Origin: Romanomermis culicivorax
Taxonomy: Eukaryota > Nematoda > Enoplea > Mermithida > Mermithidae
Direction: 5' to 3'
Assembly (NCBI GenBank): GCA_963922205.1
Contig: CAWUHX010000265.1
Location: 124,001 to 188,000, forward strand
DNA: 64,000 bases
Positions 51,415 through 59,880 of the stretch are shown here, piece after piece. The position numbers and the translations under genes were made by a program. The first letter of the stretch is position 1; the number at the start of each line of letters is the position of its first letter. The notes beneath the pieces were generated by a model. The model saw nothing but the letters and a program-made list of their open reading frames with translations, was not told the DNA's origin and did no database searches.

Positions 51415-51883
51415 TGTCACGTGCCGCTCAATTCTCCAACGTCACGTGATTCCGATCATGCCGACATTTGGTTATTTTTCATGTTTTGTTTATTACCCGA
51501 TCATGCTTTTGTTTATTTCATTTTTACACATGCATTCTACGTTCGTTTTTATATTTTTCATGCATTTCTATGTTTCGTTTTGTTGTATTTTTATTTCTTT
51601 ACAAACGCGGGCTACAGTAGGCCCTTTAGCTAAAAACTTCCGCCAGTCGTGCTCCACGAGCACATGGCTATTTTTGGTGCGCTCACGCACCTCTTATCAT
51701 CAAAAATTAGCGTCGTTTTTGTTACGCAAAACGACTAGCTAAGAAGTTTTAGCTAAAGATGTTCATATGCTCAGCATAGGCACTGCAGCCGGCCTCAGTG
51801 CTAAACGCATGTGAATGAAAAAATGTCTATGTGCTCATAGGCATCTTCTGCATCGCGTCTAGCTGCAGAAGTTAGCTTGAGCG
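51415..51883 (+). repeat. 5' LTR (shared part)
   Basis: 469 bases. Two CACGTG E-box-like palindromes stand within the first 40 bases. It contains 17 bases (about 51748-51765) absent from the right copy, and joins the polyprotein frame directly. Confidence 0.85.
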
Positions 51884-53282
51884 ACCGATCAACTGCCTGT
51901 CCGCAGCGCAATCCGGCAAACACGGGTGAGAATGTCTACCAAGATACTGGTTATTCTTCCCGGGGGACAAATGTGTATCATCAAAGAAATGGTTATCACC
52001 CTCCCAATGGGACAGAAAACCATTATCAGCAGCCCATACGCCGCAACAACGCCGTTGGGGCTACCGATGGCCCTCCTCATCCAGATCCTCTTGACCTGGA
52101 TGATGAGGCACTTGCTGAACACCTGACAGATTCTTCACAACAGTGTTATCCTGTCTGCGTAATCAGTATTGGATTTTCAGTGGTCCAAGCAGCCCAGGTA
52201 CCCGTACCGATGAACGTATCGGACATACCGCTGCCACCACCACCACCAAAGTATGCGATGCCGGTCACTCTGGACCCCTCGACGACACCGCAGTTTGTTG
52301 GCCACGCTAACATCCTCGCATCGTATCGCATACCTAAACTCAAGACTGCCGAGCCAACTCCAGCCGCGAATACGACGTCTTCGGCGCCACCGGCCCGCAT
52401 CGTCCCTCCAGGACCACCGCCTTCGATCCCCACGGATTCGGCTACGGAAGTCCTCGACCAGGTCGAGCCCATGAATTTGTCAGGTATACTACCTTCTTCT
52501 TCAGGTGATCCTAGAGTAGGAACCAGGAATCTCTCCCAGTCCACGACTCTATTGATTTCTTGTTCACAGCGCCATCGCCCGTCCAAGACGCGATGTTGGC
52601 CATCTGGTCAGTCGACCTGGCCAAGAAATACCCGCATTTGCCGTGGACTCTCCTCAACGAGCCATCAAATGTCGAAGCGCTCACGGCCGCCGACGTCGTG
52701 CTTGCAGCACCCGTCTCGATGCGCCTATTACGACCCGACGTCGCCCGCCATGCACTCGAGTTCATTGCCAATGGGACTATCACCATCTCGCCCGTCGAGA
52801 AGTTCTTATTGGACGGGGAGCCATCCTCGCCTTCAGTCGATGCCGTCCGCCGAGCAGTCGAACAGGCTAGTCGGATCCTCCTGCCTGCTGCCGCCGCTAC
52901 ATCACCGGCAGCAGCACCACCTGTTGCCGCGACATCGCCAACTAAAATGGACATTACTGCTTCCTCGCCCCCGGCCAAGGAACCCGCAAATGATCCTACA
53001 CCGCCGGCAACAGCCCAGATCAAATCGCCGGCACCAGCCCAAACGACATCTCCGACCGCCGCGACCAAGTCGCCCGTCGTCGAACCCATGGCCGTCGACG
53101 AGACCTTACGTCCAGTTAATGAGGATGTCAGCATTGTTGAAACATCACCGTTCCCAACGGCAGTCAACCCACGGTCGCCGAAAGTCGGTACCCTTCGGGA
53201 AATCCTCCCCAGCGGTGAATTGGTCCTCGATTTCCCCGACCAGGAACCAATCTCATCCGACAGCGACGAAGAAGAAATCTGA
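51841..53282 (+). CDS. Gag-like N-terminal region (two frames)
   Basis: The first frame is open from 51841. It has no ATG near its start (first in-frame Met about codon 112 counted from 51877). It encodes a Pro/Tyr/Asn-rich segment with a PLPPPPPK run. At about 52505 the plausible coding frame changes: 52570-53282 reads sensibly one frame over (KKYPHLPWTLLNEP, then Ala/Pro/Thr-rich, ending acidic SDSDEEEI and TGA 53280-53282). The original frame stays open but becomes Arg/Ser/His-rich nonsense. GT at 52505 and AG at 52568-52569 would remove 65 bases and join the two frames exactly. No zinc knuckle is present. Gag identity is inferred from position, not from motifs. Confidence 0.55.
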
Positions 53283-58100: not shown

Positions 58101-59880
58101 GCACTTTCGACCATACCTCTTCCAGCACGAGGTGGTCGTTCAGACTGACCATACCGCAGTCAAAGCAGTGTTGGAGAAGCCTAACCCCTCTGCTCGGATC
58201 GCTCGGTGGGGACTCGCGCTCGCCGAATTCAAACTGACAATTTGGCCGCGAAAAGGTCAGTCTAATGGTAATGCTGACGCATTATCACGCCTGCCGGATC
58301 CTAACTCCCTCACCGGTCAGAGTATTGATGATACTCCCCTCTACAGACCTGAGGGGCACGTTATGATGATCACCGATGGTGCGCAGCACCTGGCGAGATC
58401 AAGGACCTTGACCGATGGTGTGCAGCACCTGGCGCGTTCAAGTAATTCAGCACCGATCACTGTTGGCGCGGAGCGCCCGGTACGATCAGAGTCTTATGCC
58501 GAGATATCCGTCGGTGCGCAGCACCCCGACCTTTTCGCTGCTCAGCTGGAGGATCCGGAATTAGCCGACATCATTCGCTCTCTTAAGCCTCTGGGCGACC
58601 AGAATGATGTGCGAGGCTACCATCTGTTGGATAACGTCCTTCAGAAATGGACAGGCGAGTCCAATAAGATCGTCATACCCAGATCCATGGTTACTACCAT
58701 TATCCGGGCTCATCACGATGACATCTTAGCTGGACATTTCGGTGCTAAACGTACTGCGCGGCTCATTGCTCGCAGATACCACTGGCCCTCCCTCAGTCGG
58801 GATGTCAAGTCCTTCTGTCAGCGGTGTGATCTTTGCCAACGGAATAAGCCCGCTCGACAGAAAACCACTGCGACCCTGAAACCTATCACCATCACGGGAC
58901 CGTTTCACCGGGTAGGTGTCGACTGCATGGGACCAATGACCACTAGCGAAGCTGGCAACCGTTTCATCGTAGTCTTTATCGACTACTTTACGAAATGGGT
59001 CGAGGCTTTTGCTACTCCGGACATCACTGCGAACACCATAGCCCGACTGTTTGTAACGCAAATTGTCTGCCGGCACGGGGCACCGCAGATTCTTCAGTCA
59101 GATCGTGGCACTGATTTCACATCAAAACTGATGACTGAAATCACTGCGATCTGCGCAACGAAGAAAATCCACTCTACCGCCTATCACCCGATGACCAACG
59201 GCGAAGTGGAAAGAGCTAATCAGACGCTAGCCACACGGCTACGTATGTATGTTCATCAAGGACATACTGATTGGGATGAACACCTACCATACGCTGTGTT
59301 TGCCGTCAATATCAGCATGAATGAGTCAACAGGGTACTCGCCCTTTGAACTCATGTACGGTCGCACACCCATGCTCCCTGTTGACGCCGCGCTCTCATTC
59401 AACCCTCCGGCCCATATCATTAATGTTTCCTCATATGATATGGAGGTCAAACGTCATTTCACGAATGCGTTAACCTTAATCCAGAGTCGGATTGAGAAAG
59501 CACAGGAAGCCTATGCACGGTCGTACGACCGGAGGGCACATGATGTCTCGTACAAAGTAGGGGATCAGGTGCTCAAACTGCGCACCTCCAGCAAACGTGG
59601 ACTCACTCCTAAATTGCTGCCCATCTACGATGGACCCTACCTTGTAACAAGTGTGGCATATCCCAATGTCACACTTCGTCTCGAGATGGATCAGGAAGAC
59701 ACTGTACATGTCAACCAGCTTCGACTTTACGTGTCCCCTGAACAACCGAGTGAAGCAGAGGATACACCTCCCACTTCACAGGCAACAGATTCGGCACCCT
59801 TATTGTATCCCTCAATAAGCCGGGACTTCACACCAAATCTGATTGACCCACATCTTGATGCAGAGGTCCCCGACCCGTAA
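55180..59880 (+). CDS. Pol: two retropepsins, RT, RNase H, integrase
   Basis: Numbered from 51877. The first aspartic protease-like domain is at about residues 1108-1225 (AFLDMGC, D1122; DLILGLDFL). A Ser/Arg-rich spacer follows, then the second protease at about 1440-1540 (ALVDTGA, D1454; ELVLGTNFL). RT at about 1730-1975 has YLDD (Y1875-D1878), and RNase H (D2024, D2091) ends at NGNADALSRLP. Next comes a linker with four imperfect repeats of about 16 residues (DGAQHLARS type). Integrase has an HHCC finger (about 2279-2325), the D2349, D2409, E2445 triad with 35-residue spacing, and a GPY/F module (YDGPYLV, about 2585). There is no chromodomain. It ends TAA at 59878. All motifs point to a Ty3/gypsy-group element, intact except for DMG in the first protease. 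Confidence 0.92.
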   Translation, partial: DRITPCFVVLLDTKETPAFLDMGCPRTIISQRLHKALAKESPKAVMAFQQHHDFNPLMSINGKAVHTILSGPYEIMLPGNRQPNTRIDVHLHVCKTTSPFWAPVDLILGLDFLEQFKNIMFDYQRNVCRLDAVELPLLLTTPEIDQIDPWWENTRALSRNSHRSGSRSWSRASSISRPHSRASSVASSRGSTRGSRASSRRASRHLSTLHGSGCPRPPPGTSPVTLEKGRYREPSDSDAPTSPVPNAPPLSDTEVESLGATQSPKDHSDHILTVQDESTLLNDPEPSVGYALVGLLRRTGLPIPKRSGKTKHVSGATTPDSGHVVTAFYPNDIRTPHIKVLLNNWVEAKALVDTGAVFSLLDHKLAAQLPNLSLSPTRACPIAANGFPIPLLGAAYITVTVADVSERIQVQIQENCSAELVLGTNFLGRFNCVSLNWEKSFLQFKESRIPCDGLIHSPPSARGALPLKDLVILEPRSMTRFTVPVPPIYTNVPEVAFFPKHLTGSQRHVYFAGSVSTVTNGHIPLQVVNPSTHSVVLYPHTTIGHVQMHSEPSRESPVDSDTVLDRQWVEANAVISPDISPRDRAALLDLLVAYTDLYALDEKDTGSTDLVQHEISTGDARPVRRFPYRSSPKEKDLIMQEVKALQEKGIIRPSTSPWATNTVLVRKKNSSHRMCVDFRGLNEVTKKDVYPLPRIDDILDTLKGMKYFTTLDQANAYWSIPIAEADKEKTAFNTPIGLYEFNYLPFGLCNAPGTFQRLMDLLLTGIQWRTVLTYLDDILVFGNSHTQMLERLADVFARLRRGGMKLRLSKCKFSHSEVEYLGYRISQSGLEPDQAKLAAVQNLPIPQNAKDIKSFLGLVSYYRRFIPGCARLSEPLTKLLRKETAFQWSKPQQEAFDELRRLLTNPPILRHPDFSKSFILQTDASISGIGAVLSQLDENGYDHPVAYASRGLTAAEKNYSITELETLAVVHFVKHFRPYLFQHEVVVQTDHTAVKAVLEKPNPSARIARWGLALAEFKLTIWPRKGQSNGNADALSRLPDPNSLTGQSIDDTPLYRPEGHVMMITDGAQHLARSRTLTDGVQHLARSSNSAPITVGAERPVRSESYAEISVGAQHPDLFAAQLEDPELADIIRSLKPLGDQNDVRGYHLLDNVLQKWTGESNKIVIPRSMVTTIIRAHHDDILAGHFGAKRTARLIARRYHWPSLSRDVKSFCQRCDLCQRNKPARQKTTATLKPITITGPFHRVGVDCMGPMTTSEAGNRFIVVFIDYFTKWVEAFATPDITANTIARLFVTQIVCRHGAPQILQSDRGTDFTSKLMTEITAICATKKIHSTAYHPMTNGEVERANQTLATRLRMYVHQGHTDWDEHLPYAVFAVNISMNESTGYSPFELMYGRTPMLPVDAALSFNPPAHIINVSSYDMEVKRHFTNALTLIQSRIEKAQEAYARSYDRRAHDVSYKVGDQVLKLRTSSKRGLTPKLLPIYDGPYLVTSVAYPNVTLRLEMDQEDTVHVNQLRLYVSPEQPSEAEDTPPTSQATDSAPLLYPSISRDFTPNLIDPHLDAEVPDP
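58378..58530 (+). repeat. Four palindrome-bearing linker repeats inside pol
   Basis: GGTGCGCAGCACC, GGTGTGCAGCACC, GGCGCGGAGCGCC and GGTGCGCAGCACC are spaced about 40-50 bases apart between RNase H and integrase. Each can form a 5-bp stem with a three-base loop, and they remain in frame. Confidence 0.8.

What the first reader, a model, noticed from the sequence alone, without database searches (positions are those of the whole stretch)
51841..59880. Retroelement with the glycoprotein placed between gag and protease
The order read from the sequence is gag-like, signal peptide, Cys-rich ectodomain, TM, PR, PR, RT, RNase H, IN, with glycoprotein and pol in one uninterrupted frame. Env-bearing retroelements normally carry env after pol, often expressed from a spliced RNA. 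Here the glycoprotein would be the N-terminal neighbour of the protease, anchoring pol on the cytoplasmic side of a membrane. A diverged element at 62.6-64.0 kb shows the same gag-to-glycoprotein join, so the order looks ancestral.
Basis: partly seen in the sequence, partly recalled or inferred. Interest (0 to 1): 0.9.

Follow-up and report, generated by a model that had tools for sequence, protein, structure and literature searches.

The report
Retroelement carrying envelope inside its polyprotein
A large, recently active family of virus-like jumping genes in an animal genome carries its probable cell-entry (envelope) protein between the shell protein and the enzymes in one continuous reading frame, instead of at the end as in known retroviruses, which raises the question of how such an element makes and sorts its parts.

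Summary
The element is a Ty3/Gypsy (Metaviridae) LTR retroelement. Its glycoprotein matches class III viral fusion proteins (Pfam Monjiviricetes_fusion; profile similarity to herpesvirus gB) and lies between Gag and protease, in frame with Pol.

The window copy is damaged. A deletion joins the middle of its 5' LTR to the end of Gag; its 3' LTR runs to 61831, with a 4-base target duplication (AGTT). Of 77 copies scored in the host genome, 56 keep an open frame of at least 3042 codons (40 have exactly 3092): capsid, nucleocapsid, linker, signal peptide, glycoprotein, TM, degenerate PR, PR, RT, RNase H, IN. Variants among 22 glycoprotein copies are 50 synonymous to 10 non-synonymous, so the envelope was under selection while the element spread.

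A second family (42% identical envelope) has the same order. By coordinates, the envelope precedes RT in 45 of 45 pairs, and Gag precedes the envelope in 31 of 31.

How the parts are expressed is inferred. Host phylum and three-dimensional fold were not established. Ten library searches showed no earlier report of this order.

The parts
51411..51414 (.). Target-site duplication AGTT, left copy (right copy 61832-61835)
   Evidence: 5 other insertions also show 4-bp duplications
51415..51883 (+). 5' LTR, first 469 nt only; rest of the LTR, the leader and most of gag are deleted in this copy (junction 51883/51884)
51884..53343 (+). C-terminal end of Gag (from inside the last zinc knuckle) and linker to the envelope, frame 1
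   Evidence: matches 10 of 10 other copies, 9 without indels
52505..52569 (+). Candidate 65-nt intron whose removal leads from frame 1 into frame 0 (donor 52484 would also fit); not shown to be spliced
   Evidence: GT and AG invariant in 38 of 38 copies
52593..53282 (+). Overlapping frame-0 ORF, 229 codons from ATG to TGA (open from 52515): protein under purifying selection
53344..53403 (+). Signal peptide (hydrophobic; nearest frame-1 ATGs are 53125 and 53515)
53404..54945 (+). Ectodomain of class III-type glycoprotein
54946..55089 (+). Hydrophobic stem end, transmembrane segment and basic cytoplasmic side
   Evidence: and sequence
55150..55700 (+). PR1-like stretch with DMG in place of DTG; related decayed element at 48427 has DTG
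   Evidence: no Pfam match
56197..56466 (+). Aspartic protease PR2 (DTG, motif at 56233)
57172..57654 (+). Reverse transcriptase core (YLDD at 57499)
57841..58230 (+). RNase H
58675..59190 (+). Integrase zinc domain and rve core
59878..59880 (+). Stop codon of the polyprotein frame; next feature downstream is the 3' LTR
60400..61831 (+). 3' LTR, 1432 nt, TGTCAC...GTGACA
62616..63999 (-). Second, diverged, decayed element: four CCHC knuckles, linker, envelope N-terminus; frame 63783-62782 joins three knuckles to the envelope
45667..48427 (-). Third, decayed related pol: PR1 (DTG), PR2, RT, RNase H, start of IN; similarity ends upstream of PR1

Best explanation
This is a recently active Ty3/Gypsy retroelement, best described as an endogenous retrovirus-like element, that took a class III-type fusion glycoprotein of the Monjiviricetes kind and keeps it inside the polyprotein between nucleocapsid and protease. 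Shown: order, single frame, key enzyme motifs present, selection on the envelope, recent spread, the same order in another family read directly. Inferred: the full-length RNA is translated from the gag ATG; Gag is made in the cytosol; the internal signal peptide then sends the ribosome to the ER; the ectodomain goes into the lumen; the TM stops transfer; PR, RT and IN are made on the cytosolic side. Signal peptidase would free Gag, and PR would free Pol from the envelope tail, so Gag and Pol stay on the particle side and the envelope lands on the outside. In family 1 a second product read in frame 0, through a 65-nt intron or its own ATG and ending at 53282, probably supplies extra Gag or a Gag-tail or accessory protein without envelope and Pol.
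For: Ty3 placement: RT/RH best solved match is Ty3 RT (3.1e-90), IN best match Ty3 (1.8e-35), Gag of a full copy hits PF19259 Ty3_capsid (3.4e-8). Glycoprotein: PF24664 1.8e-14, 9.7e-14 in homologue P0003, 4.6e-16 in family 2; a 3-sequence profile finds 8 distinct solved sequences up to E 10, all herpesvirus gB, best 9.7e-5. Single frame: 40 of 77 copies open for exactly 3092 codons, 56 of 77 for at least 3042, stop to stop; in 10 of 10 gag-side pieces the frame runs to an ATG 876 (9) or 884 (1) codons before window position 53392, which makes 3038 codons from ATG where the frame is 3092. Selection: envelope 50 syn, 10 non (22 copies); family 2 envelope 67 syn, 53 non, 2 stop (10 copies, P 1.6e-12). 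Recent spread: paired LTRs of 8 copies 96.5-100% identical over 1.32-1.38 kb, two of them 100%; 4-bp TSDs at 6 of 7 insertions looked at. Order in relatives: family 2 by domain; coordinates. Frame 1 across the overlap stays open though unconstrained: 0 stops among 56 variants; 6 of 5000 codon-resampled, 85 of 5000 codon-permuted and 6 of 2000 shuffled versions are open.
Against: No RNA or protein data, so neither the single polyprotein nor any splicing is shown. A 1:1:1 output of Gag, envelope and Pol would be unusual. The depletion of frame-1 stops among variants is weak (P 0.065). With the glycoprotein alone, the best solved match was a bacterial adhesin (0.018) ahead of gB (0.15); gB leads only with profiles. 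No RXXR cleavage motif in the glycoprotein. Signal peptides in P0003 and in the second window element have a nearby ATG, so a separate envelope start is possible there. The 5' leader is about 3.7 kb, with 33 ATG triplets in the 3.0 kb read, awkward for scanning from the cap. 21 of 77 copies have shorter frames, the window copy among them, and one has a stop inside the glycoprotein; the 22 copies used for selection come from the stop-free ones.
Confidence: 0.72

Rival explanations
1. Envelope-Pol is made separately from Gag: a spliced or trans-spliced RNA joins a start codon to an acceptor just before the signal peptide (for example 53343) or to a frame-1 ATG such as 53125, so that Pol is an envelope-Pol fusion, somewhat like the separate Pol message of foamy viruses (recalled). 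Gag ends at 53282.
For: Frame 0 with a stop at 53282 is the selected protein in the overlap; frame-1 amino acids 52593-53279 are not constrained; an AG at 53343 and frame-1 ATGs at 53119 and 53125 exist.
Against: Frame 1 is kept open from the gag ATG through the overlap in most scored copies, more than chance gives. In family 2 the linker frame is open without a rival frame and is selected in the envelope frame (P 0.012). The acceptor at 53343 ranks only 11th of 85 AGs in a simple score.
Confidence: 0.22
2. The gag stop at 53282 is passed by a +1 ribosomal shift at AUC-UGA-C, giving Gag-envelope-Pol from frame 0.
For: Frame 0 to frame 1 is a +1 step and the stop is followed by C.
Against: Three Ty1/Ty3-type +1 heptamers (recalled) were looked for in frame 0 and not found; the downstream RNA is not unusually folded (z 0.15); it does not explain why frame 1 is open upstream.
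Confidence: 0.1
3. The glycoprotein is a passenger or an assembly artefact: a fossil viral gene that landed between gag and pol in one copy.
For: Jingchuvirales glycoprotein fossils next to fragmentary retrotransposons are reported in arthropods (PMC10084718, passages seen).
Against: 77 scored copies with the full glycoprotein piece, strong synonymous excess, second family with the same join, further groups by coordinates.
Confidence: 0.02
4. A conventional env-after-pol element in which this copy was rearranged.
For: The window copy does carry a large deletion.
Against: Same order in other copies and in family 2; envelope before RT in 45 of 45 pairs.
Confidence: 0.01

Closest known systems
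Anakin elements (BEL/Pao with chuvirus glycoprotein, mosquitoes; PMC7642597, passages seen)
   Same: LTR retroelement that captured a negative-strand-RNA-virus glycoprotein; 13 with all domains and LTRs reported
   Different: Belpaoviridae pol, not Ty3. The paper says the envelopes of Roo, Tas and Cer-7 lie downstream of the polyprotein; Anakin's own map is in a figure that is not held. Here Ty3 pol, envelope inside the polyprotein
Atlas virus of hookworm (PMC9094657, passages seen)
   Same: One uninterrupted ORF for all proteins (2828 residues), identical LTRs, envelope related to an RNA virus
   Different: BEL/Pao; order Gag-Pol-Env with a class II phlebovirus-like Gc at the C-terminus. Here class III type and Gag-Env-Pol
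Cer1 of C. elegans (PMC10309623, passages seen)
   Same: Gypsy/Ty3 type; no stop between gag and pol; a spliced product with an exon in a frame other than gag's
Insect endogenous retroviruses of the gypsy kind (PMC12992720, passages seen)
   Same: LTR retroelement made infectious by a captured envelope
   Different: Baculovirus F-type envelope in a third ORF
TelKA elements of bdelloid rotifers (PMC5408684, passages seen)
   Same: LTR element with a fusion protein from negative-strand RNA viruses
   Different: Paramyxovirus F-like protein as ORF3
Jingchuvirales glycoprotein EVEs (PMC10084718, passages seen)
   Same: Related broad glycoprotein type; one event in Nematoda reported
   Different: Authors found no clear evidence of capture by Gypsy elements; here the glycoprotein is part of one

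Membership tests
Metaviridae (Ty3/Gypsy) | RT/RNase H closest to Ty3 | tested here: met
   among solved structures 4ol8 3.1e-90; best enzyme other than Ty3 7.8e-58; no RT tree was built
Metaviridae (Ty3/Gypsy) | PR-RT-RH-IN order | tested here: met
Metaviridae (Ty3/Gypsy) | Ty3-type capsid and CCHC nucleocapsid | tested here: met
   PF19259 3.4e-8 in a full copy of family 1, knuckle motifs read by eye; family 2 PF00098 6.2e-6 and PF19259 4.5e-4, the latter below cut-off. Missing from the window copy by deletion
Metaviridae (Ty3/Gypsy) | LTRs with short target duplication and a primer site next to the LTR | tested here: met
   TGTCAC...GTGACA, 4-bp TSD in 6 of 7, TGG at the LTR end in 5 of 5; primer tRNA not identified
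Env-bearing LTR retroelements with gag-pol-env order | env after pol | tested here: not met
   envelope before RT in 45 of 45 pairs
Class III viral fusion proteins | Sequence match to class III families | tested here: met
   PF24664 above cut-off in P0001, P0003 and family 2; gB structures by profile; single-sequence search indecisive
Class III viral fusion proteins | Class III fold | not testable with these tools
   structure prediction switched off
Chuviridae/Jingchuvirales glycoproteins | Phylogenetic place among chuvirus glycoproteins | not tested
   no reference set; one database homologue (P0003, origin not shown)
Nematode element | Host is a nematode | tested here: inconclusive
   window GPCR matches 7tm_1 better than nematode Srsx; SL1 RNA search rang nowhere, not even in controls

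The most novel reading that the evidence does not exclude
A whole clade of animal reverse-transcribing elements, with several families active or recently active in one genome, makes capsid, entry protein and replication enzymes as one Gag-Env-Pol chain that is threaded through the ER membrane, so that Pol is packaged by being the cytoplasmic tail of the fusion glycoprotein rather than by a Gag-Pol frameshift product; in one family the Gag-only product comes from a second frame.
Probability: 0.5. Interest if true: 0.94.

Novelty: new variant of a known kind. Interest (0 to 1): 0.87.

Why it matters
The order gag-pro-pol-env, with the envelope as a separate late gene, is treated as close to universal for retroviruses and env-bearing retroelements (general knowledge). 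Here a clade has kept the envelope inside the polyprotein, under strong selection, through many copies. It shows that capture of an entry gene need not happen at the 3' end, offers another way of packaging Pol (by a membrane anchor), and is, within my searches, the first Ty3/Gypsy element with a class III-type glycoprotein. It also gives a direct test of whether one chain can cross the ER membrane and still yield particles.

Tried and rejected
Frame change in gag taken as a mutation of this copy: rejected, no indels there in 9 of 10 other gag-side pieces. First LTR boundaries (51415-51884/60400-60852) and the lack of a TSD: replaced. RNA structure after the gag stop: nothing. -1 slip heptamers in 52440-52580 and three Ty1/Ty3-type +1 heptamers in the overlap: none. 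Relatives in viral contigs: none in 4 scans. Protein searches: one homologue, again only that one, none for envelope plus protease. Rfam and tRNA in the window: none. Whether elements 2 and 3 in the window are one interrupted element: undecided, no envelope remnant found between them.

Limits of the counts. One search used all 97 envelope rows and 33 further rows typed from the 81 (129 distinct places) against all 104 RT rows; 45 pairs lie within 4 kb, all envelope first; within 12 kb one further pair lies on opposite strands (C351); 59 RT rows and 84 envelope places have no partner in these capped lists. The earlier one search used 50 envelope and 36 RT rows picked because they had partners: 31 of 36 pairs are in frame and 27 share one open-frame length. 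One search used 38 of 132 gag rows and 31 envelope rows, also picked for shared contigs; 7 of 31 pairs share one frame length (many are decayed). Family 1 copies are not in the RT list. Variant counts: up to 38 copies for gag (fewer for the capsid part), 22 for the envelope, 10 for family 2. In one search only 6 of 10 family-2 loci were read by domain; in the other 4 my motif look-up failed.
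Full report
What is in the window. Frame 1 is stop-free from 51841 to 59877. In pieces it gives, in order, a gag-like stretch without Pfam match, a glycoprotein (PF24664 Monjiviricetes_fusion 1.8e-14; BDV_G 0.0013, below cut-off), an aspartic protease, RT, RNase H, the H2C2 domain and the rve core. The glycoprotein has a hydrophobic start at 53344 and a TM just before 55089, followed by basic residues. Between the TM and the recognised protease lies a second protease-like stretch with DMG; it has no Pfam match, but a related stretch on the minus strand at 48427 has DTG. 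RT carries YLDD, integrase an HHCC pattern, and a D-x35-E pattern fits at 59101. RT/RNase H is closest to Ty3 among solved structures, as is integrase.

The window copy is not complete. When the host genome became searchable, the glycoprotein was found at 77 scored places, 99-100% identical, a lower bound by the tool's own words. The window copy's frame is 2679 codons stop to stop, but 40 of 77 are exactly 3092 and 56 of 77 at least 3042. Ten gag-side pieces match window 51884-53431 at 96-99.5%, nine of them without indels; their frame continues upstream to a first ATG 876 codons (nine copies) or 884 codons (one) before window position 53392. That upstream part holds a Ty3 capsid (PF19259 3.4e-8) and zinc-knuckle motifs. 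Upstream of the ATG there is a leader of about 3.7 kb and an LTR of about 1.4-1.5 kb. In the window a deletion joins LTR position 469 (51883) to the last knuckle of gag (51884). The 3' LTR is 60400-61831, termini TGTCAC...GTGACA, and AGTT flanks the insertion on both sides. By coordinates one full copy spans about 16.2 kb.

Age and activity. Paired LTRs of 8 copies, compared over 1.32-1.38 kb, are 100, 99.85, 96.7, 99.9, 100, 99.3, 99.9 and 96.5% identical. Four-base duplications were read at 6 of 7 insertions; C278 was not resolved. The family therefore moved recently.

Selection. Among 22 glycoprotein copies the variants are 50 synonymous and 10 non-synonymous, with none creating a stop, where 26.5% synonymous is expected (P 5e-20). 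These copies come from the stop-free ones; 1 of 77 has a stop inside the glycoprotein. Among up to 38 gag copies, capsid-nucleocapsid and the first part of the linker are constrained in frame 1 (22 of 40 and 24 of 56 variants synonymous). From 52593 to 53279 the picture changes: 34 of 56 variants fall on frame-0 third positions, 30 are synonymous in frame 0 (P 6.5e-5), and in frame 1 only 5 are synonymous, 51 non-synonymous and none a stop, where 2.7 stops are expected (P 0.065). Codon usage says the same. So a 229-codon frame-0 ORF, 52593-53282, is very probably a real protein. Its openness is unlikely by chance: 6 of 5000, 85 of 5000 and 6 of 2000 simulated versions are open, by three null models. 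A 65-nt stretch 52505-52569 with GT and AG ends would, if spliced, lead exactly from frame 1 to frame 0; its ends are invariant in 38 of 38 copies, but so are most sites, and a second donor at 52484 also fits. Splicing is not shown.

Relatives. The protein database gave one homologue, P0003, 38% identical, origin not shown. Used on the host genome, it found 81 scored places with 37-41% identity, many in long open frames and some of them family 1 copies. Family 2 (10 loci, the others 95.7-99.7% identical to L085) was read in pieces of one copy: Ty3_capsid 4.5e-4 (below cut-off), CCHC 6.2e-6, PF24664 4.6e-16, aspartic protease 5.2e-8, RT, RNase H, H2C2 and rve. Its frame is 2471 codons at 5 places. 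It has one protease motif in the stretch read and no second open frame in its linker, and the linker is constrained in the envelope frame (P 0.012). A third search showed further groups at 46-49% envelope identity to family 2, a part of them in long frames of up to 2765 codons; these groups are defined only by identity and frame length. Matching coordinates of 129 envelope places with all 104 listed RT places, 45 pairs lie within 4 kb on one strand, and in 45 of 45 the envelope comes first; in an earlier, smaller set 31 of 36 pairs were in frame and 27 shared the same frame length. Gag lies before the envelope in 31 of 31 typed pairs. The decayed element at 62.6-64.0 kb of the window joins zinc knuckles to the envelope in one frame of 334 codons; 0 of 2000 shuffles of its linker stay open.

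Class of glycoprotein. Three sequences were aligned; P0007 (family 2) is 42% and P0003 35% identical to P0004 (family 1). Their profile finds 8 distinct solved sequences up to E 10, all herpesvirus gB, the best at 9.7e-5. A two-sequence profile gave three gB at 0.05-1.2 and one unrelated receptor at 0.89, and family 1 alone gave bacterial adhesins (best 0.018) ahead of gB (0.15). With the Pfam matches this supports a class III protein by sequence. Folding was not possible, so the fold itself is untested, and so is the donor virus.

How it probably works. The sequence calls for a chain whose ends are both cytosolic and whose middle is outside: Gag, then an internal signal peptide, ectodomain, TM, then PR, RT and IN. 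I infer co-translational insertion, signal-peptidase release of Gag and PR release of Pol. This could let Pol enter particles as the tail of the envelope. In family 1 the frame-0 product, ending at 53282, would give Gag or a Gag-related protein without envelope and Pol. Family 2 seems to lack that device. The main rival is a separate envelope-Pol message.

Comparison with print. Ten library searches (listings seen) showed no report of an envelope between gag and pol or of a class III glycoprotein in a Ty3 element. PMC10084718 (passages) states that no clear capture by Gypsy was found. The library holds open-licence papers only, and Repbase was not searched, so 'unreported' is limited to these searches. 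Passages were read of PMC7642597, PMC10084718, PMC9094657, PMC10309623, PMC5408684 and PMC12992720, and the outline of PMC12440569; no paper was read whole.

Verdict. Real, open in many copies, conserved in order in two families read directly and by coordinates in others, and selected. It differs from the env-bearing retroelements compared here in gene order and, probably, in expression logic, not in the kinds of parts.

Noticed in passing
host genome places listed (for example G000:C163:625762-626676): Gag-like matches at 33-48% identity sit in open frames of about 729-796 codons, too short for a Gag-Env-Pol chain; they may be envelope-less or split-ORF relatives.
   Followed up: no
window 55150-55700 and 48427-48050: Family 1 carries two protease-like stretches, the first with DMG; a decayed relative in the window has DTG there, and family 2 showed only one protease motif in the stretch read.
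   Followed up: partly
between the two protease stretches, about 55620-55850: Arg/Ser-rich linker (SRSWSRASS... type), perhaps nucleic-acid binding.
   Followed up: no
5' leader of full copies, L030 from 1371: About 3.7 kb of leader between LTR and gag ATG with no long ORF and 33 ATG triplets in the 3.0 kb read; translation from the cap would be hard.
   Followed up: partly
window 51752-51768: 17-nt stretch present in the 5' LTR piece and absent from the window's 3' LTR, which is otherwise identical over the shared part.
   Followed up: partly
window 28000-38000: Long low-GC, strongly strand-skewed tract giving spurious long ORFs.
   Followed up: no
window 26038-26391 (+) and 8009-8989 (-): Host genes: a CNOT7/CAF1 deadenylase exon and a rhodopsin-type 7TM receptor.
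   Followed up: partly
window 51415-60852: The element is about 52% GC while the first 28 kb of the window are about 36% GC, as for a recent arrival from elsewhere.
   Followed up: no
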